This document shows positions 2 through 45,282 of a stretch of 64,000 bases of DNA, in pieces. A program made the position numbers and the translations under genes. The stretch is from Zopfochytrium polystomum. Taxonomy: Eukaryota > Chytridiomycota > Chytridiomycetes > Chytridiales > Chytridiaceae. The stretch spans positions 423,998 through 487,997 of the forward strand of contig JAIVFJ010000024.1 in assembly GCA_025765615.1 (NCBI GenBank), read 5' to 3'. Every line of letters begins with the position of its first letter. The stretch's first letter is position 1. The notes beneath the pieces are model-generated. The model made no database searches. It was given only the letters and a program-made list of their open reading frames with translations, and had not been told where the DNA came from.

Positions 2-2703
2 CACCACCAGTTTCCCCCTTTGACTTCTATTCTTTCTTCATCCTTTATCTCAAACTTGAAGGAAATGCTTCTACTTCCAAACTATACTGTGTTCCTTCCT
101 CAGTTTCCACCAGGTCATACTGCTGCCATCCTTGATGACCTAGACTTAGACTTTATCAATAGATTGGTTGCAGTTGCACCTCAACCTTTCACTCTCATTT
201 TGAGAACTTCTAAAGCCCTACCACCAGACTTCTCTCTGTGTAGGAATGTTGGCTTCTTTTACAAACATACAACAGATTTGGTCCATGCTGGCAAAATTCT
301 GCACTTCAACCCATCTATCACAGTGCACACTGGTTTTGCACCACTAATGTATCACAACTCTGCTGATGACACATGGACTTCACAACCTCCAACTGTTTTA
401 CCGCCTAGTTTAAGTACTGGTGTACGGCGTGCACTCCGCTATGGTGGAGGTTCATATCGCCTGCGGGCCCACAACTTTGATACCCAGATTAAGTTTCCCA
501 CACCTTTTCTCTTCCATCCTGAACTTAATCCATTTCTCCTTCGCTTATTCCGCCTTGTTCAGTTAAGCCGGCCTCGGCCTTGTACCCGTGTACGCCAGTC
601 GACGGAGCGACCTTCCCCTCAAAACCCCAGAGAGGCTGTCCCCCAGACAGTCCCAACCATCTACAAACAACAAAAAGAAACTCCAATTAAGGAGCCAGAA
701 ATTACCACTCCAGATGAACTACTCACCACCAAGGAGTCAAATAATCCTTTGACAATGACGAATGAGTCAAAAGATCAGCCAGATATAAAATTAGCTGAAG
801 ACCCACCTGATGGTTTCATGAAATATAGAGATTCCACAGTTGCTGAAATCTGTGCCTGGCTTGAAGGATTTGTAATTGAAAATTGCCTCATTGACTCAGG
901 ATGCAGTCATGGTGTTGTCACCATTGACTACCTGAAGAAAATTAACCACAGAACCATTGATTACAAACCACGACGACCCACAATGAGTAGTGGAGTTGGT
1001 GGACAAGTTCCCATTATTGGCTACGCCAAGCTCAGATTTAACCTCGGTAGATCTGGACTTGGCTCCAAAGCCTTTTACTTTTCTGTTGTTAAAGAATGCC
1101 CCAGACCCATCATTATTGGTACTCCCATGATGAGGGCCTTCAAAATCGACATCAAATACAGTACTTCTCAGGTTGAATGGACTATCGGAACCCATAAAGG
1201 ACCAAAACTTTTGAGTACTCCACTAAGAACTCACTGGAAACAGAAAATTCCTATCCAAGAAGAAATCTCGTACTCATATCTTGTTGCAACCAAAACTGTT
1301 ACCCTCATCCCTGGTAGTGACACAAATGCTGTCCATCTCAAACTGGATAGACCACTTGAACACAGATCTACATATGTACATGCCTCACCTGAGAATAAAC
1401 TCACTGATATTGGTGTACTTTTCCCTTCATCCCTCTTCACTGCTGATGACCTCCATGAAGATGATAACGCAAAAGAATTTAAACTACCTCTCTATGTGAC
1501 TGGTAATACTCCCATTCTACTCGCTAAAGGAACAAAGATTGCTTCAATCTTTGACCTCCCTCCTCCTCCTGAATATAAATATGGAGAAATCCCATTTGAC
1601 CCAAGGCCAAAACAAATCATTGAGGTCCCTGACTCACTTCACCATGACCCCAGGAGTCTCCTTGAAATGGCCATACTTGCAGGAAAATACAACCCTGCTG
1701 ATACTTCATCTTTCCTTAATATGCTTGAAGGTGCTGAGTCTGGAGACTCAGAATCAGACACCACACTTGGTGATTGTGCAGACCTCTCCGAATTCAGTTT
1801 TACCTCAGAAATTGATAAAAATGACTTCTCCCACTGGGAACAACTTCTTAGAGATCATAAAGCAACTAAAATAGATGAAATAGATGAAACCTCAACCACC
1901 GTTTCAGGAGAAACTCTTTGCGAAAATGAAGTAACTGATTACATTCTTTCTGAATCAGAGCCAACTTTCTTCCTTGAACAAGAAGATTCACAAATGCCAA
2001 TGAGAAACTCTGCTGCTGAAGAGAGACTTGACTATCTTCCTGCAGAAGCAACCATGACAGATGATGAAATCTGGGCTAAGATTAAAACAGACCACATTGT
2101 CAAGAACTTTGGCAAAGAGGCTGTTGAGAAGCTTAAATCTCTTGTGTATGAATTCATTGATATATTCAGACCTGGTAAAATAACTGGAACCAAGTTTGCA
2201 CCACCTCATAGAATTGAACTCCAACCTGGAGCCAGAGTTCCTGCCTCCAATCCCTATCCTGAAGGGGTGGGAAGAACCACTGTCCTTAGAGAACATATTG
2301 CCAAAATGAAAACTGACAATGTTATCAGAGAATCACGATCTCCCTTTGCTGCGCCAGTTGTACTTGCAAAGAAACCTGATGGCTCCTGGCGCTTCTGTGC
2401 AGACTTCAGGAAGTTGAATGAAATAACTGTCAAGGACAGATACCCTCTTCCCAGAGTTGAAGAAATATTTGATGCTATCAGTCACAAGCTTGTATTCAGT
2501 GCAATGGACCTGCTAAGTGGATTCTGGCAGATCCCAGTTCATCCTGATGATAGAGAGAAGACTGCCTTCATTACCTCCCAAGGACTCCATGAATTCAATG
2601 TTATGCCTTTTGGACTTTGTAATAGTCCTCCTACCTTTCAGAGAGCTATGGACACTGTACTTGCTGGAATGAAGTGGCTCTACTGCATGGTCTATGTTGA
2701 TGA
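2..2703 (+). CDS. Gypsy polyprotein, N-terminal part: protease and start of reverse transcriptase
   Basis: The frame enters from the window edge. The first ~250 codons are not recognised and show no zinc knuckle; a Pro/Thr/Glu-rich linker follows. A retropepsin-like site reads LIDSGCSHG, with the catalytic Asp codon at 893-895. Downstream lie a long acidic linker and then reverse transcriptase fingers and palm: KKPDGSWRFCADFRKLN, the catalytic block FSAMDLLSGFWQI, VMPFGLCNSPPTFQR, and YVDD starting at 2693. The sequence stops matching RT at 2704, exactly at a TG-ended insertion; the later frame ends a few codons inside it at 2728. The missing RT thumb and connection resume at 4162 in the same frame. 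The protein acts in cytoplasmic reverse transcription of the element RNA. Confidence 0.88.
2700..2703. repeat. Target site duplication ATGA, left copy
   Basis: ATGA here and at 4158-4161 flank the 1454-bp insertion. Removing the insertion and one copy restores an uninterrupted RT codon order across YVDD. Confidence 0.85.
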
Positions 2704-4157
2704 TGTGAGACTATACTCACTCCTTTGACCCTGGGATCTGGGCCCTAGAGTGAGGGAAAGCAAATAATAGGCTAAAACTAACTTTATTGGGCTGTTGTCT
2801 AGGGGGTGTTTCAACCCTACTACTTGCCTAGTCCACGAAGTATCCCTACTGATCTGTCTAACAGGGGTCTCAAACACAAAGAATGAGCATTCAGAGGGAC
2901 AATCCTCTGAAGGATCGGTGCTGGAGCACCGATTACTCGCGTGGCCACGGGCCGATGCGAGGGGAAACGGAAGGGCACTCCCAAGGGCGCAACACAACCG
3001 CAGAATAAAGAGAGAGAAGAGGGAAACGGGGGTTTTTATCGCAGGAACCTAATCTCAAATACAACAGGAGCGGTTAATAGCGACGGGACGGACAGGGCGC
3101 GACCTAGCGCCCCTCGTCGCGGACGGTGCTGCGGGAGCCCTCGTCGTCGCCAGCGACGGGGGGGAGAGGGAGAAGGGAGTCGACTATGTAGGGGTCGGAA
3201 GGTCGCCAGCAGGGAACTCGCACGCGGAAACACCTGCGATCGTACACGCACCCCGCCGGGCTGCGTCGGCACGATCACTCGACCAACGGGCTTTATCGCA
3301 TCGCACTCGTACTCACACATCTCACCCTCACAGCAATAGGACCGAGGCAGGCGCTTGTAGATCGAACTCTCAGGTGTCGGGGGCTGCACCGGGCGCAGCC
3401 ACCAACACCCTCGCGGGGACGGGAAGGTTGGGGACAACGACGCCGTCGTCGTCACCACCACCACCACCGTCATCGCGGCGGGCAAGCGCCAGGGATCCTC
3501 ACTCCAACACAGAGCCGGCAATGTCACACAGTCGCTGGTGGGGCCAGCTGCATTCCCCACCCACGGCCCCTTAAGAGGAGCCCCACGAAGGGACCATGTA
3601 CACACCCGGGTGTGTACCATCTCTCACTACCCTCACCTTTGCGAGCCAGATGGATTTGAAGGGACTCTGTATTGGTGCCAATGGACAGAAATCAGATTGA
3701 AGAAAAAAGGAAAAAGAGAAATGGCCCAAAAACAGAGAGAGAGAAAATTGACAAGTCAACCCCCCTGACTTGGAGCATCCACCACAAATGCTCTAAGTCC
3801 CCCCCAACCCTATGCATGTATGTACAAGTGCCAAAAATAAATAATAAATTAGGCGGGCTTGGGGTACGGCCTGTCAGGCACCCCATCCCTAGGCAGTCGG
3901 GCAGTCTCCGTTAGTCACCGAAAAAGAAAATATGTTGAGAAAACCCTTGTGCAACGGAAACTGTTAAGACGAAAGTAGTAAAAGCAGACCCAATAATAAA
4001 GACGGGTTAGCCGCAAATACACTTTGATAACGCCTTGGAAACTAAAGAACCGGGAGCAATAATAGGGGTCCCGATCCTTGCGGTTTTATGACAGGTACGC
4101 TTGTTTTTGCGAATAAAATCCTAGACTTTATCACTGAGACCTCGGTGTAGTCTCACA
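2704..4157 (-). mobile_element. Solo-LTR-like element inserted in the gypsy RT
   Basis: The ends are TGTGAGACTATAC and GTGTAGTCTCACA, so the element has TG...CA termini and a ~13-bp nearly perfect terminal inverted repeat, with a 4-bp ATGA duplication. No coding domain is visible. On the minus strand an AATAAA lies about 90 bp before the terminus, where an LTR polyadenylation signal would be, so the LTR orientation is probably minus. A second copy of the same family sits at 40518-43191 in the opposite orientation with its own duplication. A solo LTR left by recombination is the simplest reading; a non-autonomous element with short inverted repeats is the alternative. Confidence 0.75.
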
Positions 4158-4161
4158 ATGA
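4158..4161. repeat. Target site duplication ATGA, right copy
   Basis: Direct repeat of 2700-2703 bordering the insertion; the RT frame resumes immediately after it. Confidence 0.85.
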
Positions 4162-7100
4162 CATAGTAGTTTACTCTGACTCTCTGGAGCAGCACTTTGA
4201 GCACCTAGGAAATGTCTTTGGAAGGCTCAAAGAATACAACTTGAAACTGAAGCCATCTAAATGCAACTTTCTCTATGCTGACCTCCCCTTCCTTGGACAC
4301 CGCATTTCCAAGGACGGAGTTAGCAAAGACCCAACTAAAACTGCATCGCTGGACAATTACCCTGTTCCTCAGACTCTTATTCAAGTCCAGAGATTTCTTG
4401 GATTTGCCAATTATTTTAAGAGATTTATTCCCAATTTCTCCTCCAAAGCAGAACCCCTTTACAGATTGCTGAAAAAAACTGATGCTTTTATCTGGACCAG
4501 TGATCAAGATAGAAGTTTCAGCACCTTAAGAAGTGAGCTTGCTAGAGATACTATTCTCTATCTCCCTAAAGAAAGTGACAAACTAGTGATAGTTTGTGAC
4601 GCTTCCAAAGTAGCACTCGGTGCAGCACTCTATGCTGTTGAACCTGAGCATCCTGCCTCTAGACATCTAAGGAAGCCTGTGGCATTCGCTTCAAGAGTAC
4701 TTACTGATGTTGAAAAACAGTACAGCAACACTGACAGAGAAGGCCTTGCTGTTATTTGGGCCATCAACACTTTTGAAAGATACCTTTTCAAACAGAAATT
4801 TACTGTTGAAACAGACCACATTGCTCTGCTACCACTGTTCAAAAATGGAGCCCTGACTGGGAGATTTGCTCGATGGGCTTACCAACTTAGTGACCTGGAT
4901 GTTGAACTAGTTCATGTACCAGGAAAATCCAATATTGTTGCAGACACTCTCTCACGAGTCCCGCTTGCCAAAGACGTAAATCCCATAGAGTTTGAAGACA
5001 CTGATGAAGAAGGTTCAGACACGTCAGGTGTCTTACCTAAAACTGAAGAAACCAACACTAGTGTTGAAAAAGAGGTAGGACCCATTGCCACCAAGTCTCT
5101 ACCTGAAGAAAATTCAGTCAAATCTCCTGAGGTCAATTACACTCTTGAAAAAGAGTTAGATTTATCTACCTGCTTTGTTTCAATCAATAAGTCATTAACT
5201 TTTCTTGAGCCTTCTGAATACCAAGAAGCTTTTGAATCCAGGCGCAACCAGTTTGAATCCTTCATTTCTACAAATAAAGCTCTCACTCTGAAAGACAGTA
5301 ATGGACTATTCAGCTCTGTGCTGAGAGCCTACTACAGGCACCATCCTGACGTCTGCCCTACACAACCAACACCTCCTCCAAATAACTATGCCCTTGGCAT
5401 ATCAACGTGGAATGTGAATAGTATTCGATCTTGGGCCCGACATTTGAGACCAGCTGAAGACAATACTCCTGCTCTCAAAATCTTCGAGAAATACCTTGAC
5501 TCCCAACCCTGTTCCATTGTATGTCTACAAGAAACAAGAATCGGCTCCAAAGCTGAAGCACTTTACAGTGGTCTTCATAACCTCACCAACTGGAACTGCA
5601 TCATTCATGACCCCAGAACTGGAAAAAATGGTGTTGCAGTCTTTTGGAAAAAAGAACTCAACGGAATAGAGCATAAAACATCCCCTTTTTCTCACCATCC
5701 TGACATTGAAGGAAGGATGATAACCGTCCAGTTTAGTGAAATTGCAGTTGTTACTGTTTATGTACCTAGTGCATTTCACGACCCTGAAAGGGAAAAAGTA
5801 AAAAAAGCATTTCTTGAGAATTTAAGAAATCACTGCAGACACTTGAGAAATCAAGGCTTTGTTGTGATTGTAGCTGGTGACTTCAATGTCGCTCATAACA
5901 AAATTGACATTCATCCTGCTATTGAAACTTACCTTGAAAGAAAGAATGCCTCCTTCTCTAGCTACTTTGCCTGGGAGCGTGGCTGGCTCACTGCTTTTCT
6001 GAAAGACGGTTTTATGGACACATATAGACAAAATCATCCACTAATAAATGGATATACTTGGTTAGCACCGCAAGGAACAATACGCGGCAGAACTGTTGAT
6101 TATCCTGCTCTCCGAGTTGACTACATCTTTGTTGATAACAGAATGTACAACTCTGGAGTACAGACATCACTCTCCTCAACACTTCACCCACCTAGCGATC
6201 ATCTTCGAGTTGACTGCTACCTGCCTCTGTCTTCAATCCCAACATTTAACAAGCCCGCTTCTGAGCTGCTAAATCAACAGGAATCACACTCCCTGTCCAT
6301 ATGGAAGACACCTGAGTGCCCACCCAAATCCAAAAGGTTTGATAATAACAGAACTTCTCGGATCTATGGAGCTCTACGCCCTCCTCCGATTAAAACCTTT
6401 TCTTTCACTCCTTCCCTCCTGAAGAGGCCTAAGCAACCCCTTCAAACCATGCTTAACGAACCTATTCCCAATCACTATGAATCTTTTGCCTTTGAAAAGC
6501 TAGGCATCTTTGCTAAAACTGACAAAGTCAGAAAGCTTCAGCTCGCTGATCCCTTCTTCGGACCAATTCTCTGCTTCCGCGAAAAAGGAACCATCCCTGA
6601 TGAACCTCCTCCTGCTATGACCAAATGGGCCGAAAAGATGGTTCTCAGAAATGGACTTCTTTATAGAATTATTGATTTACCCTCTTTTATGCTGAAAAGA
6701 GCGCCACTTAGACTCGCTCTTTGTGTACCTGATACTCTCAGGCGAGAAGCACTTCGGCTCTTCCACGACGACCTCTTCGCAGGCCACTTTGCAAAAAGAA
6801 AATCCTTGGATGTTATCCTTGACAGATTCTGGTGGCCTACAATCTCAACTGACCTAGATAATCATATCCACAGCTGCGAAACCTGTCAGAAAACAAAAGA
6901 TCACCCTTTTAAGCCTGGTTTCCTTCACCCTGTTCCCATTGGATCTTACCCGTTTGAAAGAATAGCTGTTGACTTTGCTGGACCATTCAAAAAAACCCCT
7001 GACGGTTTCAAGTACATTCTTGTTGCAGTTGACTACTTCACAAGATGGGTTGAAGCAATCCCTCTTCCTGATCTTGATGATGTGACTGTTGCCACTGCCC

Positions 7101-9142
7101 TTGTAGAAGAAATCTTCTGTCGACATGGTATACCTGTTCAAATACATTCAGATAATGGTCAACCGCTCAAATCAGAGTTAGTTGCAACTTTAGGACGTGT
7201 TCTCGGAATGGGACAATCCTTCACATCACCATATTGGCCTCGTGCTAACGGGCTTGCAGAAAGATTTATCAAAACCCTCAAAAGCATAATTAGGGCTTAC
7301 ATCAACGAGCACACACATGAGGATTGGCCAAAAATCCTTCCCTACGCGCTGTTTGCTTACAGAACACATCCCCATCCACTTCTTGGTGAAACACCATTCT
7401 TCCTCTTACACGGACGTGATTGCCGTTTACCGCCTGACCTCTTCTTTGGAGTCACCCCTGAAGATTATGAGGACACTCCCAAAATAACTGAAATATCTGA
7501 TGTTGTTGTAACACCCAGCAGTACCAATCAACCTGAAAGTGAATCCCTCCACACACGCACTGTTGTAAAAGGAAAAGCAATTCCTCTTATTACCAATCCT
7601 TATTTGACGCCTGCGCCGCTGTTAAGAATTGCCTACATCTCAACAATCGATCTGAGAATGACCTTATTACAGCATATTCCTAGAAAGCTTCGACCATATC
7701 CAATTGAGCCATCAGTTGGGAATGTCCTCCGCGACCTTGTTGAAACCCACAATTTAGACATCTTGTATATTGTTTCTACTCGCACACCTCGAACTCGCTC
7801 AACAAAGAAAGTGGATCTGCCGTTTAAAATTCACACTCACAATGGCACACTTGTTCGAGTTGTTTCTTTCTATAATGCACCCAAAAAAGAAGTTAGACAT
7901 ATCTACGCTCTTCCAGATACCATTTTCTGCGATACCGACAGACTGTGTCCTTCTCTTCTGCGCGGCTATTGTACTGCTGACAGAACAGCCAACCTTAGAT
8001 TTTGGCATATTGAGCTTGCGCCCTCAGGAGCAGCACTAATAAATATTAAAGACATTGAGCCCCCCCAAGGAGTCCCTCTTTGGGAAGGATCATCACCCCC
8101 ATTACTTCTCCAACTCCCTTCACCAGGAGTAGAAGAAGATCTGAACTTCACTGCCACTTATCTTTCTGAAGAAGGCGATATTGATCAATTCTTGGAAACT
8201 GCTGAAGAAGAAAGTTGTATTTATCTCAATAATTACATCCACCATTATGTTGTAAGAACACTTGATAAATTAACTCACGCGCATCTTGTTGCACAACAAA
8301 ATGCTGAATCACAACAAAGAAGATCAAAGAAAAAGTCCAAAGAAGAAGATTCCAACCCTCATAAGCTTGTTCCTGGAGATAAAGCTTGGATGGCTGTAAT
8401 CCTCAGACCTACTAAATCTGAAATACCCGAAAATGAAAGTTTCCTTTACCGATGGGCAGGTCCAGTCAGAATAATTAAAATTGATGGAAAAGACTCCAAC
8501 TCTAAATGCACTATTGTTGAAACATACCCTGGTAAAGAGATTGTGGCCAGAACTGTCCATATTTCTCGTCTTCGTCCATTCACTCCAAGACTCCCTATTG
8601 ATTCAGCTGAAGATGCCCTCAAAAGCAATGCTGAAGAACTTGCTGCAACCATCAAAGAATGGGAAAATGCAGTGATACTCAAAAGAAAACCTGGCACAGC
8701 GCAGAGAACAGCACTTGGAATGAGCATTGAGCTCATGAGAAGATTTGACCCAGATTTCTCTGAAGAAGATGTTGATAGACCTCTCTACAACGTAGAAAAG
8801 ATTCTCAAGTTCCGAGTATGCGCCGACAATTCTTATCAATATAGAGTGAAATGGGCCACTTATTCAAACAAACACAACAACTGGCAAAATGAGTCAGACA
8901 TGAATCCAGAATTCATAAACGATTATTGGGAAGCTATACGTCTCACCAATCCACCTGCTTATAAAGAAAGACAAGGCATTCTGAAAATAGGACTGCAGAA
9001 ACAAAAGCAAGTTACCCCCACTGTAACCCCACAAACTCAAACACCTGCAGCTTCTGCTTCTACCGATGCAGTTGTCCCAGCACCACCAACTATGACTCGA
9101 TCCTATGGATTGAGGCAGCGCCCTCCAGTGAAGTATAAGTGA
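4158..9142 (+). CDS. Gypsy polyprotein, C-terminal part: RT end, RNase H, APE endonuclease, integrase, chromodomain
   Basis: The RT thumb resumes at once (HFEHLGNVFGRLKE, then FLGHRISKDGV). RNase H spans about 4575-4960 (VCDASKVALGAAL, later ETDHIAL, ending near ADTLSRVP). After an acidic linker an ExoIII/APE1-type domain occupies about 5390-6240. Integrase follows: an HHCC zinc-binding region at about 6757-6897 (HDDLFAGHF to CETCQKTK), then the catalytic core with Asp in AVDFAGPF (about 6965), Asp in HSDNGQ (about 7148) and Glu in NGLAERFIK (about 7255). An unassigned ~270-residue stretch (about 7490-8330) precedes the integrase C-terminal module (KLVPGDKAWMAV, YRWAGPVRI). A chromodomain lies at about 8788-8935 (YNVEKILKFR, YRVKWATYSNKHNNW). 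The stop is at 9140-9142. The chromodomain would direct integration to marked chromatin. Confidence 0.9.
5390..6240 (+). other. ExoIII/APE1-family endonuclease domain inside the gypsy polyprotein
   Basis: In order, the frame shows the family's motifs: ISTWNVNSIR (metal and phosphate-binding Asn), IVCLQETRIG (metal-binding Glu), VVTVYVPSAF (the Tyr), IVAGDFNVAHNKID (catalytic Asp and Asn), GYTWLAP, RVDYIFVDN and PSDHLRV (Asp-His pair). Every residue known to be catalytic in APE1 has a counterpart. The GDFNVAH...ID form resembles true AP endonucleases more than the version used by non-LTR retrotransposons. It is in frame with RNase H upstream and integrase downstream, with no stop or splice signal needed, so it belongs to the element. 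The predicted activity is Mg2+-dependent nicking at abasic sites or of DNA in general. Confidence 0.9.
7490..8330 (+). other. Unrecognised insert between integrase core and integrase C-terminus
   Basis: About 270 codons separate the end of the catalytic core region (FFLLHGRDCRLPPDLFF) from the C-terminal integrase module. They include a structured-looking stretch with alternating hydrophobic and charged segments (LLRIAYISTIDLRM, LDILYIVSTRTPR, LVRVVSFYNAP, RHIYALPDTIF) followed by an acidic segment and a Lys/Arg-rich one. I do not recognise a family. Typical chromovirus integrases join these modules with a much shorter linker. Confidence 0.55.
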
Positions 9143-9927
9143 TGGATCACTAGGGTTTCCATTGGTGACGAACGCTCTCGATTCCCTACCATTACTATAC
9201 CGATCCTGCGAGCGGAGCGCCTGATGTTGAAAAAGAGGTACTATGAGATTCCTAATCTCATGGGCCATTGAGCTATTGAGGTCTCTTTAAAAGCTCTTCC
9301 TTGACTAGTTCATTGGTTTTACCTTTACGTATAGTGGCCCCCCCATCAATCACAAACAACCACTCTATTCCTATGTTTGAATACTTATTCTTACTTTCAA
9401 AAGTAACTCAGTGCTGATGCCCCGCATCAAAAAGAGCATCTGGTGTTCCTTGTGCTGAATGGGCCTAAGCACAAGGCGCACACCCTTTATTTCTTCTTAT
9501 TTTTACTCATTTTCTCTTATTTTCCCTTTTTCCCACCTTTCAAGCCTCTGTCCCTGCACTGATGTGGCCTCCCAGCCCTCAATTTCAGCCCATCTCAAAT
9601 ATGAGGCAGGAGAGACACTGGGTGGAGGGGGGTGTGGCTGAAAGATGATTCATTCTTACAAATTGTTCTTTTCTTTCATTTTCTCCTTTTTACTATCTTT
9701 TGTCTTTTTCTTCTTTTTCTTCCTCCTTCTTTCTTTCTCTCTCTGATCCCCATAAATACTGCCCCTTTCCCCCCTTCTTCTCAATAATAACTCTCAACTC
9801 AAAACAATCAATAAGACTCCCCCTTGGGCAGCCCCTGTTTGACTAGTTGTGTCCCTCATATCTCCTTTCAGGGTGTTGTAAGGTGAGTGCCTCCCCAAAA
9901 GACCATGTGTGTGGTGGATAGGAGACC
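9143..9927. other. Gypsy 3' flank, possible LTR, non-coding
   Basis: No open frame of note. It holds a perfect 9-bp stem-loop at 9448-9476 (CCTTGTGCT and AGCACAAGG around an 11-base loop), long pyrimidine tracts (about 9480-9745) and a TATA-like CATAAATACTG near 9750 followed by AATAATAA. This could be the 3' LTR with its promoter, but no second copy is available to prove the ends. Confidence 0.35.
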
Positions 9928-10216
9928 TTCCCTGGCAAAGTGCAGAGTGAGCCAAGCAGGGAAGACAGAGTCCTCTTTTGGTGTAGGAGATCCCCCTGGC
10001 AAGTGCAGAGTAGGCCAAGCAGGGTGGATTAGAAGTCCTCTTTGGCCAGAGCCCCCAGACCAAGCAAGTAGAGGTAGCATTCCCCCAGGCAAGTGCAGAG
10101 TAGGCCAAGCTGTGTGAGTGCCCCCTTCCCAAAGCAAGAGTGTGTGAAGACCAAGTTGGGTTGGGTCTACTGAGATGAGAACTTAGAGAGGCTAGTGCAG
10201 AGTGGGCCAAGCTTTC
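9928..10216. repeat. Four dispersed copies of a ~25-bp motif
   Basis: The motif GGCAAGTGCAGAGTAGGCC with following AAGC recurs with small changes near 9932, 9990, 10089 and 10190, separated by unequal spacers of about 35-80 bp that are themselves not repeated. It reads as a degenerate minisatellite in retroelement-derived sequence. Confidence 0.6.
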
Positions 10217-10649
10217 TTTGTTACTTACAGTAATCTGCCATTGCACCCCTCTTTTGAGCACAACTTCACCATCAGGTTCTTCCCTCTTCAAGTCAAGCCT
10301 GTCTCATCTTCCACATCAAGTTGGTATGTCGGATACCATCCCGTCCTGTATGGGCGCTCCAGGGCTTAACCCTGTCATCTCATGCCTATGGTACCCATGA
10401 TTCATTCATGTGGAGACTTGTCTCTGTATGTTTGTCCATGGCTGTTATGGCACTCATGGGTCAGCAATGACTCATGACAGTTATTGATTGGTATATCTGT
10501 GCTTTCAGAGCATACATAGAGAGTAGTATTAACACCAACACCAGGGTACTGGCCCTTAGAACCAGGAGTTCCCCATCATTGATGACTTGTCCTTTCCCCA
10601 CATATCCACTAGACTATGGGATGAGCCTTCAGAGATGTAGAGGATCTCA
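10217..10649. other. Non-coding stretch
   Basis: No supported gene, repeat or RNA was seen here; open frames are short and lack family motifs. Confidence 0.5.
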
Positions 10650-10781
10650 TAGGCAAGCGTGACTGGCACAGGGTAAAAACCTCTCCTACATTATCTGCTT
10701 GAGCAGAGGAGGAGGTAATCTGTTGACACTGGGTTTCTGTTCCACTTGGAGTATTTGTCATCAGCGCAAGCCAGTGCCCAG
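10650..10781. repeat. Dispersed repeat, copy 1
   Basis: This ~130-bp segment, starting TAGGCAAGCGTGAC and including TGCTTGAGCAGAGGAGGAGG and GTATTTGTCATCAGC, is found again at 58343-58481 inside copia copy D with few changes. The two places share no coding frame, so it is a separate interspersed repeat or a fragment of one. Confidence 0.75.
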
Positions 10782-29037: not shown

Positions 29038-32000
29038 TCACGAACTCCACTGGCTCCCTTCTTCGGCCCCTCCCAAAGCGCTCGTAAGCCATCCCGAGTA
29101 GCCCCGGTGCTTTTCTCCCGCAGGGGAACCCATTTCGACGTCATCGCCAGCATCGACCAGCTCTCCCGCATCACCTTCGCTGACAATGAAGTCGTCGAGT
29201 GCTGCTGGCGTTGGCGCTACACCGCCGTCCCCTCCACCAGCGAAACCGTCTCCAACTGCGAAGCCGTCTGTACCGTCAGCTTGCAAGCGATGCGGATTGT
29301 ACGCATGATTTCCAAACGTGAAAGGCCCGTTCAGTGGCCGATGTGCTCCGGCTTTGGTTGGCAGACTACCCGCGGCAGCCTGCGTATAGTATAGTTCAGC
29401 TACTCTTTGCAGGTCTGGTGCAAGCCCGGCGGGTGCGCACATTGACGCCGGATTCGTTCCTGCCGCTGCCGCTGCCGCCGCCATTCCTTCAAGCTCCCTC
29501 CGCATCTGATAAATGGAACCCGGAGGCATCGGGTGCGCATACATGACGCGCCCCGAATCTACAGGGCCACCAATGATGTTGCCCTTGGGTTTTCGAGACC
29601 GCTTCTCGACCGGAGCATTTTGCAGAGTGTTTACGTCCGATTGCAGTGGATTGGTCGAAGGCGGTGCGGTTGAAGACACACCAACAGGAGGGTTGGGTAC
29701 AGAGGTACCGCTGCCTGCCGATGCAACTACTCTTGCTCCACGAGGAGCTGAGTTTTTGGAGCCGGGTGGCCGACCGCGTCCACGTGGCTTCTTGACTTCC
29801 ACCGGAACCGCTGGAGAAGCAGATGAGCCTCGGGGTGGGCCATGCCCGACATCCACTTGCTCGGGGGCAGTGCCCCACGTGCCAACTTCCTTGAAGCTAG
29901 CACTGCTGTTGGCGATACCATTCGGCCGAATCGCGTTACGCGCAGACCCTGCCGCTTCACCAGGTTCTTGCTGTTGCTGCTGCTGCTGGGCGGCTAAGCT
30001 CGCTGCATCTTCGACTCTATGCCTCTTTTTGATCACGTCTGTTTTCAGTGACAAAGGTCGGTTGGAGCCGTGCAGCTTATTGTACAGCCCGCACGCGTTA
30101 CACAGCATTCGATTTTCATCGTCTTTGCGCCACAGCGGGGTATTTCTTGTGAGGCAATTCGCGCACTCGATGGCGTTCAGATGCTCTGGTCTAATGTTAC
30201 TGGATGGTTGCATTGTCTTTGGTCGGTTCACACCATGCAGCTTGTAGTACAACCCACAGGCATTGCACAGGATTGCATCATTGGCGCCTTTACGCCACAA
30301 TGGGGTCGACGTTACATTGCAGTTGCTGCATTGATTTGAGGAGGCCCACATTGCAGCGAGAGGAGTTGCATTCCCCGAAGCCGCTGACAAACCTGCTTGA
30401 TGTCCAGTTGATGGTGGCAACGCAGTCGGAGCACTTGAACATTGAGCAGCTGCATTGAATACTTTCATTGAGTCGTCGTCAGCCCGAGCGCCAGACGGCT
30501 CAACACCAGGAGCGGCCATCATTGGAGCAGTCGCACGACGCGCCGCCGATGTTTTCGGTGCCCGCTGGGTTCGCGGCCTGCTCGACTTCGTTGCATCAAG
30601 TGGCTTCCTTCCGTCAAGTGTTGCACTGACCCCTTGCTGCGGTAAAACCGGCTGCATCTCCATATCAGGTTCCGCCGTCATGTGGAAAGACCTATCGTGG
30701 CCCTCTTGCTGGCTTTCACTATTCGTGGACGCCCAGGGAGCGGACAAACCGAACGACGACAAACTCAACGCACCAGCGCTGCGCGGTTTCACGTCAGCGA
30801 GAGGATCAAATGTGGGCGATACGGGAACGGTAATAGACCCGAAAGACGCGAGATCGGCAGCGGCCGTTGCGGCGCTGAAGTATCCATCTCTTTGGCGCAC
30901 TGGTTTAGCCGGAGGAGACGCCATCGGGAAGAGGCTCCTTTCCGGCTCCATTGGGTTTCGCAGTGTCATTCGACGCAGTGCCTCGAGATTCTTGAACTCT
31001 TCGCCGAGAACACTATTCAAGTCCATCCCCATGGCTGCGAGAGAGTCAAAAAGAGTGCCATCAAGCAGCGCCCGCCAAATATCTTGCACGTAGTTGTTGG
31101 AGTCAAGTTGCTGTTGCTGTGGGTACTGATGCTCGTCCGCAGAAGACTTCAGCGCACTGCCCATTGACTCCAGAGCGTCCTCGAAATTCTCCAAACTAGT
31201 AGTATGGGTACATAACAAAGAGGGTGAACCATTTGGTGACATTGCTGGTGGGAGTGCCTCCATTTGGGGAAGGTTTTCCGAATCGTTCCTTTGGCGGACT
31301 TCTGGGAAGTAATCATCCATTTGCAGGTGTGCTCCGGTGAAGCTGGGAGGCTTCACGTGCATGGCTGGGACGGTGGGCTGAATGGCTGGCGTCCTCTCAC
31401 TGGACGAGAAGCGGAGTGGCGGGTTCGTTGCAAAATTAGAGGACGGTGACGGGTAAGGCGATGGATGGAGCGAGTTGCCGAAAGGAGACTGCGAGGCTGA
31501 AGCCAGAGGAAGGTGAAAATTGAGCTTTGTGCGCTTTGCAGGTCTTGCATCCGGCATCGATGGTCTTCCCATGCTGTTTGAACCATTGGCAGCGCTGCCG
31601 CCTGATGATGAGCCAGCAGTACTGTTTGCAGCCCCAACAGACGAGTCGAAAGGCAAAAGCACAGGGCGGCACAGTCTTGGTGGTAGAAACATTTCGTTGC
31701 AGCTGATAGCTGATGGAACAAACGGCTCAGACGTTCCGGGCGCTACTGCATCATTTGCGATCGAAGTGGCGGCGTCCATTGGCACGTCACTAGGAAGTGC
31801 AGGTGGAGGAGAAGCCGGTGATGGGACCGCCTCGACGCAGCCAGCCACGGGCGGATCAGAAGTTTGCAGCGAGTGAGCTGCGAGCTTTTGCTTTCGGGGG
31901 AGCTCCTCATCTTCGTCTTGCCCGTTCTTAGTGGCTGCAGGAGAATCGGCTGTTGCGGCCGCCTTTTTCTGCTGCTGCTGCTTGAGCAAAGAGGCCTTTA

Positions 32001-32430
32001 TCCGCTCTGTCCATGGGTGAGAGGAGGAGCAGCGGTTAAGCGGAAAGAAACTGCGATGCCGGGACCAGCCAGACAAACCTCTGTGCCACAAACGCCAGCT
32101 GAAATTTTCCAGTCGCGTTCCGTTTTCCAAGACTTCTTTGACCTTTTGCAGTCCATTACGGGTTAATAACCACAGGGGCCAAAAAGGGAAAGAAAGGACA
32201 ATGCAGAAGACAAAGCAGACAAATTGATGTGATGCCCGATTCGGGGAATACAGAAAAGGGAAAAAATTAAATAGCTCTCAATTCATTTTTTGGGGTGCTC
32301 CGTCAGATGAGGAGGTTGAGGCAGGCACACGCAGGGCACGAAAACGAAACGAACGAACTAACGAATTGCATTCGCCTCCCGCAGACGCATGCGTGTCTAC
32401 ATGGGGAAGGCGGGAAGAGAGAGAGAGAGA

Positions 32431-37506: not shown

Positions 37507-39203
37507 TCAGAGGAAAGAGAAGAAACAAAGGCCAATGCGACTCAAATGGTATTCACTGAGAGCAGGTGAGAGAGATTTTGTCATATAGTCTGCAGGCTGT
37601 TCTCCTCCAGCAATCCATTCAAGCCATACTACTTTTTGTTCCATGAGTTCTTGAATATAATGATACTTTACCATGATATGCTTTGACCAATTGGTGTAAA
37701 GATCATTTGAACTGAGGTTGATCACACGGCTGTTGTCAGTGTAGATAACAAGAGGGAGTTGGAGACAGAAGTTGAAGTGCTGAGTAGAGTTGGGATAGTG
37801 CCTTAAGTTCTCATTCCAGTTCAGACACAGCCACATATTCAGCTTCCTGCGGTGACAGCATGACAGTGCTGCTCTGAACAGATATCCAACTAATGGCTGT
37901 TCCCCCAAATAGAACTTAGTAGCCAAGCTGTGATTTCCCATCTGAGTGGACACCACAGGCAGCGTCAGAGTAACCAGCTATATCTGTGCAGTTGCGAGAA
38001 TAGAATAAACCATACTCACTGTTACCGTTGAGATATTCGAGAACCTGAATAAGGGTCTTCGTGTGTTGCTCACTAGGATCCTTGCTGAAAGCACCAAGGT
38101 ATGAAACTGCTGGGGCAAGGTCTAGCTGTGTGTGTGTTGCAAGGTAGTTGATGCCACCAAGGATTGCCTGGTACTTTCTTTGGTCTGCAGCTCCCACATG
38201 GCTGAAGATTGAGACTACTGGGAAGGGCAGTTACTGCAGTGCGGTTGTTGATAATGTTGGCATGGCGTTGAAGCAACTCCTTGATATAGGCTTTCTGGTG
38301 CAAGAAGATTCTGTTGTGGCAGTGTTCCAGTTGCATATTGAGGATGGTTTTGATTGTTCCTATTTCGCAGAGCTTGTAACGAGATTTTAGCAGTGTGATG
38401 GCAGAGGTGATATCCCCAGAATCCCCAAAGAAACAAATATCATTGACATAGATGACAATGAAAATGACTTTTCCATCCACTTGATGGAAGAGGATACAGG
38501 GGTCTGCTGTGCTTTGCTGATATCCATTCGACTTCAGGTGGCCAAACAGTTCTTGATACCAACACTGGCCAGCTTGCTTGATACCATTAACAGCTCTCTT
38601 CAGTAGCCAGACTTTGCCATCACTGCAGTAGCCGTCTGGCTGCTCCATGTAAATGGGCACATTGAGCATGCTGTTTAGGTACGTGTTGCTGATGTTGACA
38701 ATAGCAGTGTGCCAGTTGTTTGCAGCTGCCATGGCAATGAGCCAACGAAGACTATTGATTCGGACAACAGGAGAGTGAGTATTCCAAAAATCAATGCCAT
38801 GACGTTGAGTGAAGCCCTTAGCCACAAGCTGTGCACAGAAGCGCTCAATGCTGCCGTCTGGTTTAAGTTTGACCTTGTAGACCCATTTGTTCTGCACGAT
38901 GATGATGTTGGTGGGCCATTCCACAACTTCAAAGGCTGCTAAAGTGCAAAGGCCATTGATCTCAGTCTGCTCTGCTGCAATCCACTCCTTGGACCATTTA
39001 CCTGACATAGCTTCTGCACGAGTTTGAGGATCGGGACATGTTGTGCTTGTGAGGTAAGTTTGCCCAGAACGTGTACACTTGGCTGAGTTGTCAGGTGATG
39101 GTGAACATGAATGTTGGTGATGAGGAGGTGGTTCTGGTGGAGGTGGAGAAGCTTGTGCTGCATCCCTAGTGGGTGTGTCTGCCATTGTTTTATCTTGTAG
39201 GGA
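37507..39203 (-). pseudogene. Copia copy B RT and RNase H, inactivated
   Basis: The frame runs from MADTPTRDAAQ through the RT blocks (NKWVYKVKLKPDGSIERF, FWNTHSPVVRINSLRWL, GIKQAGQCWYQELFGHL) but the polymerase motif is YVNDICFFG, i.e. the first Asp of YVDD has become Asn (near 38440). A frameshift around 38200 moves the reading to another frame for LGGINYLATHT, and another near 37930 breaks RNase H (IYTDNSRVINLSSNDLYTN). The reading frame ends at 37507. The upstream start could be the splice acceptor at about 39203 as in copy A. Confidence 0.85.
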
Positions 39204-39690
39204 CTTTGGAGGAATTAGTTTATAACAGTCTCAGATATCCAACACACAAAAGTAAGCAAGGATAAAATGCACAGGTGAGCCTTCTGCATGATGCTGATCT
39301 GGGCTCCCCCCCAGTACCCTATGAGGTGAGGCAACCACTCCCCCATACACAGCTTGCCCCAACGCTACCCCCCAGGTCTCGCCTGGGCCCATCAGGAGAA
39401 TAACTGTCTCCTGGTTGGTGCTCCTCACAGAATGGGCTCCCTGCTCAGGACTCCACCTCCTCTGACACAGGTCCAGGCCATACTAGCCTACAAGCTGGGG
39501 CGTCGGTTGTCGTGGGCCTTCAGTTGCTTCACATTGCTGGTCTAACCCCCGATCTGGTCTCCCTCAGTCACGCCTACAATGCTCCCAATAAGGCCCACTG
39601 GAGTTGATGTTAATTGCAGTAGCATGGAATCCAACTCATTGTGCTGTCACCTCCAACACCAGAGCTGTACATTGTTATCTGATTCACTTT
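39204..39690 (-). other. Copia spacer/intron between integrase and RT, copy B
   Basis: Non-coding and similar to 49078-49575 of copy A: the 5' side has CAG followed by GTAAGC and the 3' side CCAAAG followed by TCCCTACAAG on the minus strand, so both splice-like ends are kept. Confidence 0.6.
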
Positions 39691-40513
39691 TCGCTGTGCT
39701 TACCTGAGGGGTGACACTTTTTACCAATTCCACTTGGGCCACTGGTGTTGGTTCTGGCTCAGGTAGCTGTTCAATGTGTACGTTTGCTTTGCGAAGGAGG
39801 GCCTTGATGTTGGTGTTGGTTTCCTGAAGTTCGGCAGCTGAGAGTAAGGGCGTGTGGTGATGCTGGAGTTCTGAAGCGTCATCATCAGCATCTGATTTGT
39901 TGAGTTTGGGAAAGCTGTCTTTGGCAATAGTGAGGTCATTGAGGCGATGTGTGATAACGTGAACAGTGTTGATGTTGATGAGCCAGGCAATAGATCGGCC
40001 TATATTGCCGATGTATATTGCTGGTCGTAGTCGTTCTGCCAGTTTCTTGTACTGATGTGTGCTGCCGCGTTCCTTGGCTGTCACATAGTAGAGGCAACCA
40101 GTGCCAAAAACCCTAAAGTGGCTGATGCAGGGAGGAAAGTCAAGTAGCATTTCAACCGGTGAAAGCAAACCACGACTGAGAACTGGCAGTGTGTTGATGA
40201 TGTCCACGGCATGTCGAATAGCATAACCCCACCAAGACCAAGGTGAGCCAGCATGAGGAGTTACATCCATGACTGTCCTAACTGCACGTTCTGCTTTGCG
40301 GTTGAGCTCTGGTGTGTGTGGTGGGCTGACTTCAACCCGTATCCCATGAGAGGCACAGAAGCGTGCAAAGGCAGTTGACTTAAGTTCGCCCCCATCAAAC
40401 CTAACTGACTCAACCTGAACGTCTCGCAGAGTCTGGAGTTGCTGAATGATTTTGATGGCTTCTGGTAAAGCATCAGACCTCTGTTGTAGGTTGGTTGACC
40501 AGATATAATTGCT
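39691..40513 (-). pseudogene. Copia copy B integrase, downstream part
   Basis: It begins in the core (SNYIWSTNL), has the second catalytic Asp in RFDGGELKSTA and the Glu in PELNRKAERAVRTVMD, then the C-terminal GSTHQYKKLAERLRP region. It is separated from its upstream half (43196 onward) by the solo-LTR-like element. Confidence 0.85.
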
Positions 40514-40517
40514 GACA
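40514..40517. repeat. Target site duplication GACA, left copy
   Basis: GACA here and at 43192-43195; copies A and B share the empty-site sequence (GCTGACATAGTC on the + strand), so the join is confirmed by copy A at 48256-48275. Confidence 0.9.
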
Positions 40518-41476
40518 TGTGGGACTACACTGAGGTCACAGTGATAAAGTCTAGGGATTTTATTCGCAAAAACAAGCGTACCTGTCATAAAACCACAAGG
40601 ATTGGGGCCCCTATTATTATTCCCAGTTCTTTAGTTTCCAAGGCGTTATCAAAGTGTATTTGCGGCTAACCTGTCTTTATTATTTGGGCCTGCTTTTACT
40701 ACTTTCGTCTTAACAGTTTCCGTTGCACCAGGGTTTTCTCAACATATTTTCTTTTTGGTGACTAACAGAGACTGCCTGACTGCCTTGGGATGGGGTGGCT
40801 GACAGGCTGTACCCCAAGCCTGCCTAATTTATTATTTATTTTCGGCACTTGTACATACACGCATAGGGATGGGGGGACTAGAGCATTTGTGGTGGATGGT
40901 CCAAGTCAGGAGGGTTGACTTGTCAATTTTCTCTCTCTGTTTTTGGGCCATTTCTCTTTTTTCTTTTTTCTTCAATCTGATTTCTGTCCTTGGCACCAAT
41001 ACAGAGTCCCTTCAAATCCATCTGGCTTGCGACAGTGAGGGTAGTGAGAGGTGGTACACACCCAGGTGAGTACATGGTCCCTTTGGGGCTCCTCTTAAGG
41101 GGCTGCGAGTGGGGAATGCAGCTGGCCCCACCACCAACTGTGTGACACTGCTGGCTCTGTGTTGGTGTGAGGATTACGGGCACTCGCCCGCTGCGACAAC
41201 AGTCGTGGTGGCGACGACGACAGCGTTGTTGTCCCCAACCTTCCTGTTCCCATGAGGGTGTTGGTGGCTGTGCTCGGTGCGGCCCCCAACACCTGAGAGT
41301 TCGATCTACGAGTGCCTGCCTCAGTCCTATTGCTGTGAGAGTGAGATGTGTGAGTATCAGTGCGATGCAATTAAGCCTGTTGGTTGAGTGATCGTGCCAA
41401 TGCAGCCTGGCGGGGTGCGTGTACAATTGCAGGTGTTTCGGCATGCGAGTTCCCTGCTGGTGAGCTTCCAACCCCT

Positions 41477-42415: not shown

Positions 42416-43191
42416 GGTACACTGCTTCTGCATGCTTGCTGTGCTGTGTTACATGTGCAGAGTGCGTAGTTTGCGCGTTTTTGTGCATGTTCTAATTGCA
42501 TTGTTCCTACCGGTAGGATGAACAAAGCTAGAACAACAGCCGCCTTTGCCTATCTCTTTTTATTGAGAACAGATTAGCCCTTCCGAGCGCCCCATTCAAG
42601 TATTGAATCTACTGAGCCCTTCAAACACCCCATCCAATGTGATTGGATGGAGTTCTCAAAGGGATCATCAGTAACGGGCGTAGTGTACCCCGTGGGTCGA
42701 ATCTCAACATAGTTGGCTCCCTTCTCTCTCTCCCCCCATCGCTGGCGACGGCGAGGGCTACCACAGCACCGTCCATGACAAGGGGCAATAGGTTGCACCC
42801 TGTCTGTCCCGTCGCTATTAACCGCTCCTGTTGTATTTGAGACAAGGTTCCTGAGATAAAAACCCCTCTTTCCCTCTTCTCTCTCTTTATTCTGCGGTTG
42901 TGTTGCGCCCTTGGGAGTGCCCTTCCGTTTCCCCTCGCATCAGCCCACAGCCACTCAAGTAATTGGCGTTCCAGCACCGATCCCTCAGAGGATTGTCCCT
43001 CTGAATGTTCATTCTTTGTGTTTGAGACCCCTGTTAGACAGATCGGAAGGGATACTTAGTGGATTAGGCAAGTAGTAGGGTTGAAACACCCCCTAGACAA
43101 CAGCCCAATAAAGTTAGTTTTAGCCTATTATTTGCTTTCCCTCACTCTAGGGCCCAGGTCCCAGGGTCAAAGGAGTGAGTATAGTCTCACA

Positions 43192-43195
43192 GACA
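43192..43195. repeat. Target site duplication GACA, right copy
   Basis: Direct repeat of 40514-40517 at the other border of the solo-LTR-like element. Confidence 0.9.
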
Positions 43196-44194
43196 TAGTC
43201 AATGGCAATGAGGGCAAAGCCGTACTGCCCCCTGAACTTGGGTTTGACCTCCACAAGGTCAAATGCCAAGTGTTCCCCAGGTAGCTTGTCCGGAGGATCT
43301 GTGTGGGGAATAGAGGCACTTGACTGCTTTGCAATAATACAGGCCTTACACTCGTCCTCAAGCAGTTCTAAGTCTATGTCTGGAAAGTCAGCACAGGTTC
43401 TCTGTTCCTTCATGGAGTGAAGTTGAGCATAGGGAATGTGTCCTAGACATTGGTGCAGTCGGCGAGTGTCTGGTTTTTTGCTGTTGAGAAATGCTGCATG
43501 AATGCTGAGTGTGTCTGCAGGTTCTGCTGACGTGAAAAAGTTGTAATATCTGCTGGCGCAATGGGCAAGAAATTGAGTGCTGTAATTGAAGGATGGGTTT
43601 GCTGCAGTTGGGAACCACTGGAGGCCGTGCCGAAGGATCATTTGAACTACTGCTGGGTCACCTTCTTCATAGCTGCTGCAGTGAATAACGCCTGGTTGGA
43701 GGTCTGGTGCCAAGTGATAGTAACCGCACAGCTGGAGGTCCCTGTCAGCAATAAGGTTCACTGGGTATTCTGGAGCAAACTGCGTGCCTTCAATAATGAG
43801 AGTGATGTTGTTTGCAAGAGGAATTTGTGCAACGCCTGAGCCCTTGCAGTTGAGAACTGGGCCTTCCTTGGCGATGCGCATGCTGGATTTTTGGTTGTTG
43901 AAGGTTGATGGGATAAAGAAGGAGAAATAACGACGAGTAGTAACATTGCAACCGTTATCAATAAGGAGAGGAAAGGAAGTAACAGGAGGTGGAATGTTGA
44001 CTGCAAATGCCCAGATAACTCCTGGACCATCCAAGAATACTGTTGGTGGTTGTCGTCACTTTGGCTGCCAAACTGTGAGTTGTAAGTCTCTTCCCATAAC
44101 TGCTGTTCACTTGCAAACTGCTGACTCTGTTGATCATCCCAATCACTGTCTGCTGGTGCGTTGTACAATAGGAGTGCCTGTTGGGATTCTGAGA
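43196..44194 (-). pseudogene. Copia copy B gag end, protease and upstream half of integrase
   Basis: Minus-strand reading gives the gag tail, then protease with LLIDNGCNV, the pre-integrase zinc region (LHQCLGHIPYAQLH to CKACIIAKQ) and the first core segment with Asp in LAFDLVEVKPKFRGQYG. It stops at the solo-LTR-like insertion at 43191 and continues at 40513. Confidence 0.82.
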
Positions 44195-45282
44195 GGAGGT
44201 GGTTCTGGAGGTGGATTTTGCCGCATCCCTAGTGGGTGTGTCTGCCATTGTTTTCTTGTAGGGAGTTTGAAGGAATTAGTTTATAAAACTCTCAGATATC
44301 CAACACACAAAAGTAAGCAAGGATAAAAAAAAATTCTGCACAGGTGAGCCTTCTGCATGATGCTGGTCTGGGCTCCCCCCAGTACCCTATGAGGTGAGGC
44401 GACCACTCCCCCATACACAGCTTGCCCTCAATGCTACCCCCCGCATCTCGCCTGGGCACATCAGGAGAATAACTTTCTCCTGGTTGGCACTCCTCACAGA
44501 AAAGGCTCCCTGCTCAGGACTCCACCTCCTCTGACACAGGTCTGGGTCCACACTTGCCTACGAGTTGGGGCTTCAGTTGCTTCACATTGCCAGTCTACCT
44601 CCTGCTCCAGTCTCCCTCAGTCACGCCTATAGTACTCCCAATAAGGCCCACTGGAGATGATGTTAATTGCAGTAGCACAGAATCCAACCCATTGTGCCAT
44701 CACCTCCAACACCAGAGCTGTACATTGTTATATGATTCACTTTTGCTGTGCTTACCTGAGGGGTGACAGGGTTAGTTTGTTGTTACTTCATGGAGCAAGT
44801 CGAGCATAGGGAAGGTGTCCTAGACGTTGGTGCAGTCGGTGAGTGTCTGGTTCTTTGTGTTGAGAAATGCTGCACAAATGCTGTGTGTCTGCAGGTTCTG
44901 GTAATATCTGCTGGCGCAATGGGCGAGAAACTCCCAGGCCATCCAAAAATCCTGTTGGTGATTGTCATCACTTTGGCTGCCAAACTGTGAGTTGTAACTC
45001 TCTTCCCATAACTGCTGTTCACTTGCAAACTGCTGACTCTGTTGATCATCCCAATCACTGTCTGCTGGTGCGTTGTACAATAGGAGTGCCTGTTGGGATT
45101 CTGAGGCATCTGCTCCTGCACGTTTGGAGCTGAAGGACATTCCCTTGCATAATGTCCACGACCACTGCAATTGTTGCAGGTGACATTTGTGGATGCCTGG
45201 CTCTGGTGTGGATGGAATGGTTGCTGTGGTTGCCATCCACTTTGCTGCAGTCGCCATCCCTTCTGCTGGGGTCGCCAACTTC
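44195..45282 (-). pseudogene. Rearranged second copy of copia internal sequence within copy B
   Basis: From right to left on the minus strand: gag zinc knuckle (CNNCSGRGHYAREC), a jump past the protease into the pre-integrase region (FLAHCASRYY), a jump into the integrase-RT spacer (44770-44260), the start of the RT exon (MADTPTRDAA at 44248), then a jump back to the gag tail. This order needs internal deletions plus a join between two element copies, as produced by template switching or unequal recombination. Confidence 0.7.
45278..45282. repeat. Target site duplication ACTTC, left copy
   Basis: Pairs with 51797-51801 and identifies the ends of copy A; removal reconnects the gag sequence of copy B, as can be checked in copy A gag at about 47088-47092. 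Confidence 0.92.

What the first reader, a model, noticed from the sequence alone, without database searches (positions are those of the whole stretch)
5390..6240. Complete APE1/ExoIII-type endonuclease inside a Ty3/gypsy polyprotein
APE endonucleases belong to non-LTR retrotransposons, which use them to nick the target; LTR retrotransposons insert by integrase. Here a domain with all catalytic residues of the ExoIII/APE1 family lies in frame between RNase H and a complete integrase. Its motifs look like genuine AP endonucleases more than non-LTR ones. It might repair abasic sites in cDNA, process the primer, or give an alternative, integrase-independent route into nicked chromosomes. I know of no described chromovirus with this architecture, though I cannot search.
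Basis: partly seen in the sequence, partly recalled or inferred. Interest (0 to 1): 0.88.

Follow-up and report, generated by a model that had tools for sequence, protein, structure and literature searches.

The report
Retrotransposon with built-in DNA-repair enzyme
A family of copy-and-paste jumping genes (Ty3/gypsy LTR retrotransposons) in this unnamed, likely fungal genome carries a complete ExoIII/APE1-type DNA-repair enzyme domain fused into its main protein between RNase H and integrase, where it is predicted to mend damaged spots in the element's own DNA copies before they are likely inserted by integrase.

Summary
Window 5390-6241 encodes a full ExoIII/APE1-type domain in frame with RNase H upstream and integrase plus chromodomain downstream. 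It is no join artefact: in the own genome 30 retroelement-linked copies pass the xth equivalog cut-off, 22 of them near full length and stop-free. Subfamilies A and B share this order, C has it by coordinates, D has APE ahead of RT. A public ENA contig encodes RNase H-APE-integrase too (P0036). The seven catalytic residues checked are present in 13 of 13 clean copies, and dN/dS is about 0.08, like RNase H and integrase. It is not LINE-type. Both copies whose ends were read have near-identical LTRs and 4-bp target duplications, as integrase leaves. The window copy is broken by a solo-LTR-like insert in the RT YVDD box. Most likely role, inferred and untested: an AP endonuclease / 3'-end-cleaning enzyme for the cDNA, placed where non-primate lentiviruses keep dUTPase. 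Eight open-access searches on the question found no description of it.

The parts
2..2703 (+). Upstream part of the Gag-Pol frame in this copy (continues from upstream of the window): aspartic-protease-like DSG motif near 887, RT fingers/palm up to the YVDD box
   Evidence: RVT_1 at residues 790-906, E 1.4e-21; DSG motif by pattern; frame register continuous with the open frame at L042:4789-7998
2704..4157 (.). Nested insert, read as a solo LTR of another LTR element (ends TGTGAGAC...GTCTCACA, target duplication ATGA at 2700-2703 and 4158-4161); breaks RT in this copy
   Evidence: ends read directly; homology to the C40 copy resumes at 4160; that it is an LTR was not tested otherwise
4493..4891 (+). 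RNase H of the polyprotein
   Evidence: PF17917 E 6.8e-26, PF17919 E 1.8e-25
5390..6241 (+). ExoIII/APE1-type endonuclease domain (Pfam match 5405-6202)
   Evidence: PF03372, TIGR00633 above cut-off, AlphaFold model pLDDT 85, best PDB match Neisseria AP endonuclease E 2.6e-21, all catalytic residues checked
6725..7261 (+). Integrase: H2C2 zinc finger and core with D-D-35-E spacing (D codon 6971, D 7151, E 7259)
   Evidence: PF17921 E 1.3e-17, PF00665 E 1.7e-12; motif
8786..8932 (+). Chromodomain at the end of the polyprotein
   Evidence: PF00385 E 1.5e-8, above cut-off
9242..10651 (+). 3' LTR; its 5' partner lies upstream of the window (L042 from 2379)
   Evidence: blastn, one difference in 1412 aligned bases, the last two of which lie past the LTR end
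10652..10655 (.). Target-site duplication GGCA, same four bases before the 5' LTR
   Evidence: flanks printed

Best explanation
This is a complete ExoIII/APE1-type endonuclease domain fused into the polyprotein of a chromodomain-bearing Ty3/gypsy LTR retrotransposon, between RNase H and integrase, where it is predicted to cut at abasic sites and clear blocked 3' ends in the newly made cDNA so that integrase would receive undamaged DNA. Shown: the domain, its place, its catalytic residues, its conservation in many copies and in a second data set, its ExoIII-type rather than LINE-type kinship, purifying selection, LTRs and 4-bp target duplications. Inferred: that it is released or carried in the particle with RT, RNase H and integrase; that it is active on abasic DNA; that cDNA damage (uracil excised by host glycosylase, oxidised or depurinated bases) is what it answers; that host polymerase or RT and host ligase finish the repair. 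It would be the downstream counterpart of the dUTPase that non-primate lentiviruses encode at the same place in pol.
For: Domain and order. Repetition: 72 matches to the domain in the own genome, some of them pieces of one copy; 21 of 30 fetched domain loci show RNase H, APE and integrase in that order, 29 of 30 show at least one other piece of the polyprotein, 1 shows APE alone; 28 of the 30 nearest RNase H loci have at least part of APE beside it. Second source: P0036, 1710 aa, a public ENA contig, RNase H 13-117, APE 290-551, integrase 679-848, chromodomain match 1578-1625 just under its cut-off, APE 38% identical to the window's, same catalytic residues. Selection: dN/dS of APE 0.085 (C251 vs C136) and 0.082 (C251 vs C350) beside 0.092/0.110 for RNase H, 0.081/0.082 for the integrase core, and 0.257/0.395 and 0.124/0.961 for the two linkers. 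Abasic-pocket positions matching ExoIII W212, L226, I228 (roles recalled) are W, L, V/I in 13 of 13 copies. Trees of APE and of integrase both join A, B and P0036, with P0036 outermost (A+B support 90/70 in the APE tree, 100/97 in the integrase tree), as joint inheritance predicts. Lentiviral dUTPase lies between RNase H and IN (PMC4531489, passages); ASFV AP endonuclease is essential for growth in macrophages (PMC2958311, start of abstract in a listing).
Against: No activity was measured. The residue matching ExoIII F213 is L in A and T in B instead of an aromatic, and loops are longer than in ExoIII, so substrate preference may have shifted. ExoIII-type enzymes also have 3'-5' exonuclease, 3'-phosphatase and RNase H activity (recalled), so the sequence cannot single out abasic repair. 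The host has its own APE1-type gene, so the element should not need one unless the host enzyme is absent where cDNA is made. dS is near saturation in the wider comparisons, and for A1 vs A2 the APE dS could not be computed; the near-identical A2 copies (C40 vs C61, C40 vs C49) differ in APE only by a non-synonymous change (dN 0.002, dS 0). The 13 copies were chosen for clean frames and amount to about five distinct sequences. RT stretches of the C kind without an APE match in the lists exist (C88, C27, C110, C96, C416).
Confidence: 0.55

Rival explanations
1. The domain acts during reverse transcription as a 3'-5' exonuclease / RNase H / 3'-phosphatase: it trims primers, flaps or mismatched 3' ends made by RT, rather than repairing abasic sites.
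For: ExoIII/APE1 enzymes are known for these side activities (recalled); the model's PDB matches include the Neisseria 3'-5' exonuclease/3'-phosphatase NExo (ranks 36 and 39); the domain sits next to RNase H.
Against: Best matches by sequence and fold are AP endonucleases and Mth212; RNase H is present, so that activity is not missing.
Confidence: 0.25
2. The domain nicks chromosomal target DNA and gives an integrase-independent, LINE-like entry route.
For: APE domains do this in non-LTR elements (recalled); family D carries APE ahead of RT, as LINEs do.
Against: Complete D-D-35-E integrase; full-length LTRs and 4-bp duplications at 2 of 2 copies examined; APE is ExoIII-type, not LINE-type.
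Confidence: 0.07
3. The domain works mainly after integration, helping to mend the single-strand gaps and flaps left by integrase, or counters a host DNA-damage or editing defence.
For: It lies next to integrase in A, B, C and P0036.
Against: Integration gaps need flap removal, fill-in and ligation, not AP cleavage (recalled); no host editing enzyme was sought here.
Confidence: 0.1
4. A passenger: a nested APE gene or an assembly join with no role.
For: Nested inserts do occur here (window 2704-4157).
Against: 22 near-full-length stop-free copies, subfamilies with conserved active sites, dN/dS near 0.08, and a separate contig with the same order.
Confidence: 0.02

Closest known systems
Ty3/gypsy chromoviruses
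   Same: Protease-like motif, RT, RNase H, integrase, chromodomain in one frame; LTRs; short target duplications
   Different: An ExoIII/APE1 domain of about 280 residues between RNase H and integrase; in the C40 copy a very long (about 1480 residues) region before the protease motif without Pfam match
Bacterial/archaeal ExoIII (NApe, Mth212, ExoA) and eukaryotic APE1
   Same: Fold, catalytic set and abasic-pocket positions
   Different: Part of a retroelement polyprotein; a separate group (100/99) on a long stem, outside the group that holds the host's own APE1
Non-LTR (LINE) retrotransposon APE domains, including the dual-endonuclease family Dualen (name recalled; only a reference title seen)
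   Same: Same EEP superfamily (PF03372)
   Different: The abundant copies of this genome that I take for LINEs score at most 63.4 bits with TIGR00633, the domain here up to 142.9; this element has LTRs, integrase and RNase H in gypsy order
Non-primate lentivirus dUTPase
   Same: Extra nucleic-acid-quality enzyme encoded in pol between RNase H and IN (PMC4531489, passages)
   Different: Different enzyme and fold: one keeps uracil out, the other would repair what its removal leaves
Orchid Ty3/gypsy elements with an AlkB m6A demethylase
   Same: Gypsy element that captured a nucleic-acid-repair-type enzyme (PMC9289625, passages)
   Different: AlkB sits in an additional ORF and acts on RNA methylation

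Membership tests
Ty3/gypsy chromovirus | RT, RNase H, integrase in that order in one polyprotein, chromodomain after integrase | tested here: met
   window and C40 copy (both subfamily A); in B a chromodomain-region match was seen in one fetched locus only (L038), most B loci end before it
Ty3/gypsy chromovirus | LTRs and short fixed target-site duplication | tested here: met
   2 of 2 copies read: 908/908 identical LTR bases with CGGT; 1411/1412 aligned bases with GGCA; no B copy was read to its ends
ExoIII/APE1 (xth) family | Score above the curated equivalog cut-off | tested here: met
   TIGR00633 143.4 bits vs 99.05
ExoIII/APE1 (xth) family | Catalytic residues N7, E34, Y109, D151, N153, D229, H259 (ExoIII numbering and roles recalled) | tested here: met
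   13 of 13 clean copies and P0036
ExoIII/APE1 (xth) family | Cleavage 5' to abasic sites | not testable with these tools
   needs an assay
Non-LTR retrotransposon with APE | APE of the LINE type, no LTRs, no integrase | tested here: not met
   ExoIII-type by score; LTRs; integrase
Ty3/gypsy chromovirus (families C and D) | LTRs, chromodomain | not tested

The most novel reading that the evidence does not exclude
A whole branch of LTR retrotransposons carries its own base-excision-repair step: distant gypsy lineages in one genome joined an ExoIII-type AP endonuclease to pol, in two different positions, because abasic damage of cDNA limits LTR elements as uracil limits lentiviruses.
Probability: 0.4. 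Interest if true: 0.88.

Novelty: new variant of a known kind. Interest (0 to 1): 0.77.

Why it matters
APE domains have been a marker of non-LTR elements. Finding a selected, ExoIII-type one inside LTR elements separates 'has APE' from 'inserts by target nicking', gives a natural system for asking how much DNA damage limits reverse transcription, and is a possible functional parallel to the lentiviral dUTPase at the same position in pol. It could also mislead annotation pipelines that call PF03372 plus RT a LINE.

Tried and rejected
Assembly join or chance: rejected (many loci, a separate contig). LINE endonuclease: rejected by TIGR00633 scores. One match there, C228:68356-68835 (80.9 bits, partial), I could not class; it also resembles an insect APE1. 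Recent capture of the host's own APE1: not supported, since the host gene falls in another group (98/97, 97/98). Polyprotein search with the APE region alone returned only P0002, which lists PF03372 and no retroelement domain; it missed P0036, which the integrase region found, so its silence shows little. Viral contigs: 113 pattern matches, none a relative. The NApe Gly164 versus NExo His167 position as a marker of AP activity (recalled) was considered and dropped, as E. coli ExoIII has another residue there and the region is loop-rich. A count of LTRs in the genome was asked seven times; the machine did not answer. Whether C and D captured APE independently: the integrase tree rejects one clade for A, B, P0036 and C at p-AU 0.016 after five long-branch rows were dropped, but the group was tested after the tree was seen; the RT-RNase H tree with D does not reject one clade (p-AU 0.25, D branch very long). 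So this stays open.

Full report
What was checked. The window frame 4151-9142 (+) is a 1663-codon part of a Ty3/gypsy polyprotein with RT end, RNase H, Exo_endo_phos, integrase zinc finger, integrase core and chromodomain, all in frame. The Exo_endo_phos domain at 5390-6241 passes the curated cut-off of the exodeoxyribonuclease III equivalog family (143.4 vs 99.05 bits). In the PDB by sequence it is nearest to 5cfe, 2jc5, 5j8n and 3g91 (B. subtilis ExoA, NApe, M. mazei ExoIII, Mth212 by the titles; E 2e-24 to 1e-21), with human APE1 chains from about 1e-12. An AlphaFold model made from the window's own domain and 31 of the 33 proteins (P0011 and P0017 left out) has mean pLDDT 85 and pTM 0.88 (alignment). 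It matches Neisseria AP endonuclease 4b5f best (E 2.6e-21, TM 0.79/0.87), then Mth212 and other ExoIII enzymes, with APE1 from rank 25.

Not an artefact. In the window's own assembly (80.16 Mb, 761 contigs, unnamed) the domain has 72 matches at E up to 1e-5, counted piece by piece. Of the 30 loci fetched there, 21 show RNase H, APE and integrase in that order within about 3.8 kb, 29 show at least one other piece of the polyprotein, and one (L020) only APE (L018 and L019 are one broken copy, L010 is the window itself). Starting from RNase H instead, 28 of the 30 nearest loci have at least part of APE beside it; L069 and L071 do not. Two subfamilies stand out: A (window, C8, C40, C442, C61, C49, C13 and broken copies; 74-100% identical over the main matches) and B (about 40% identical to A; C251, C350, C77, C55, C117, C461, C136, C42, C54 and broken copies). 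With TIGR00633, 31 of 141 listed matches pass the cut-off (149 of 187 candidates were scored, so counts are lower bounds): 30 in retroelement settings, and one exon of the host's APE1-type gene on C103, whose other exon falls just short (98.2 bits). 22 of the 30 are near full length and stop-free. The abundant second group of PF03372 copies, which I take for LINE ORF2 (not tested further), scores at most 63.4 bits; one partial match, C228 with 80.9 bits, is unclassed.

A second source. Using the integrase part as bait in 5.8 billion proteins, the top hit of 41 is P0036, 1710 aa on a 6438-base ENA contig of unstated origin, 56% identical over integrase. Pfam finds RNase H 13-117, Exo_endo_phos 290-551, H2C2 679-736, rve 752-848 and a chromodomain match at 1578-1625 a little under its cut-off. 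Its APE is 38% identical to the window's and keeps the catalytic set. None of the other 40 hits lists PF03372, so the domain is rare among gypsy polyproteins seen there.

Families C and D. By coordinates, on C104 and C20 RT-RNase H is followed by APE, and on C104 by integrase; the integrase of C20 was not seen. On C143, and in the copies on C55 and C79 (100% identical over the 817 residues compared), APE comes before RT and RNase H in one frame of 1416 codons (1235 on C79), with an integrase zinc finger after them in the 817 residues read. RT stretches of the same kind on C88, C27, C110, C96 and C416 have no APE match beside them in the lists; some are broken. C's integrase falls away from the A/B/P0036 group; D's RT is very divergent. 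Their LTRs, and the letters of their APE domains, were not obtained.

Selection and active site. Of the 30 domain loci, 13 with clean frames were used for codon work (about five distinct sequences). Between C251 and C136, dN/dS is 0.085 for APE, 0.092 RNase H, 0.054 integrase zinc finger, 0.081 integrase core, 0.257 and 0.124 for the linkers on either side. Between C251 and C350 it is 0.082, 0.110, 0.148, 0.082, 0.395 and 0.961. In most wider comparisons dS is saturated or nearly so; there the amino-acid identity of APE (0.76, A1 vs A2) lies between the enzymes (0.83-0.85) and the linkers (0.53, 0.55). The near-identical A2 copies differ in APE only by a non-synonymous change (dN 0.002, dS 0), too little to weigh. 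The seven catalytic positions checked, and D258, are conserved in 13 of 13 copies. The abasic-pocket positions W212, L226 and I228 are W, L, V/I; F213 is replaced by L (A) or T (B) (residue roles recalled).

Origin. In a tree of 43 domains (7 of the 13 copies, near-duplicates left out; P0036; the host gene; E. coli XthA; 33 proteins) the retroelement set is one group (100/99) on a long stem. It lies in the half that holds the host and an insect APE1, not in the half that holds E. coli ExoIII; within that half the host and insect APE1 lie in another group (97/98). So this looks like an old acquisition, not a recent copy of the host gene. The donor is unresolved.

Insertion. The C40 copy is 14,678 bp, with two 908-bp LTRs that are identical and the 4-bp duplication CGGT. 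The window copy has LTRs with one difference in 1412 aligned bases and the duplication GGCA. Both point to recent insertions of the kind integrase makes. The window copy then took a 1454-bp insert with ends TGTGAGAC/GTCTCACA and duplication ATGA inside the YVDD box. Frames of 3741 and 3723 codons without interruption exist at C40, C61 and C442.

How it most likely works. Gag-Pol would bring the domain into the particle with RT, RNase H and integrase. cDNA that has lost bases, or whose 3' ends are blocked, would be cut 5' to the abasic site or cleaned, leaving a 3'-OH for fill-in, before or while integrase handles the ends. Non-primate lentiviruses keep dUTPase at this place in pol, and the same review states that uracil removal leaves DNA that is repaired by apurinic endonuclease, polymerase and ligase (PMC4531489, passages only). 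ASFV shows that a virus can depend on its own AP endonuclease (PMC2958311, start of abstract in a listing). Everything said here of the element is inference.

What is in print. Ten searches of the open-access library were answered, eight of them on this question; long result lists were seen only in their top 20-30 titles. I looked at passages of PMC3248453, PMC5890265, PMC10799480, PMC6338049, PMC9289625, PMC4112212 and PMC5348765. None of these passages describes an APE domain in a Ty3/gypsy polyprotein. PMC6338049 names a DnaQ-like 3'-5' exonuclease as a known accessory domain of LTR elements. PMC3248453 mentions 'complex transposons' with extra domains in a supplementary figure that I could not see. 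Subscription journals and Repbase were not searched, so prior description cannot be excluded.

Host. That it is a fungus is my guess from gene content read by eye, not a test.

Noticed in passing
G000:C143:48000-51155 (L078), same at C55 and C79: A second architecture: ExoIII-type APE ahead of RT, RNase H and integrase zinc finger, with a very divergent RT.
   Followed up: partly
window 2704-4157: Solo-LTR-like insert with 4-bp duplication inside the RT YVDD box; 35 bases of its start also match DNA beside the C40 copy.
   Followed up: partly
L039 from 1438 (C40 copy): About 1480 residues before the protease-like motif have no Pfam match and no CCHC knuckle by pattern: an unusually long and unknown Gag-like region.
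   Followed up: no
P0040 (2707 aa, ENA protein): A gypsy-type polyprotein with a dUTPase domain (622-742) and a Monjiviricetes fusion glycoprotein domain (1103-1237) ahead of RT.
   Followed up: no
window 38073-40630, 43147-45451, 46112-50970, 54426-56240: Frames that read like several Ty1/copia elements and fragments on both strands (by eye, no profile search).
   Followed up: no
L073 (G000:C103): Host APE1-type gene with two matching exons; the stretch between them reads as a (CA)n-type repeat (HTHTHT in translation).
   Followed up: partly
window 29038-32277 (-): Frame with two GATA-type zinc fingers, likely a host transcription factor (by eye).
   Followed up: no
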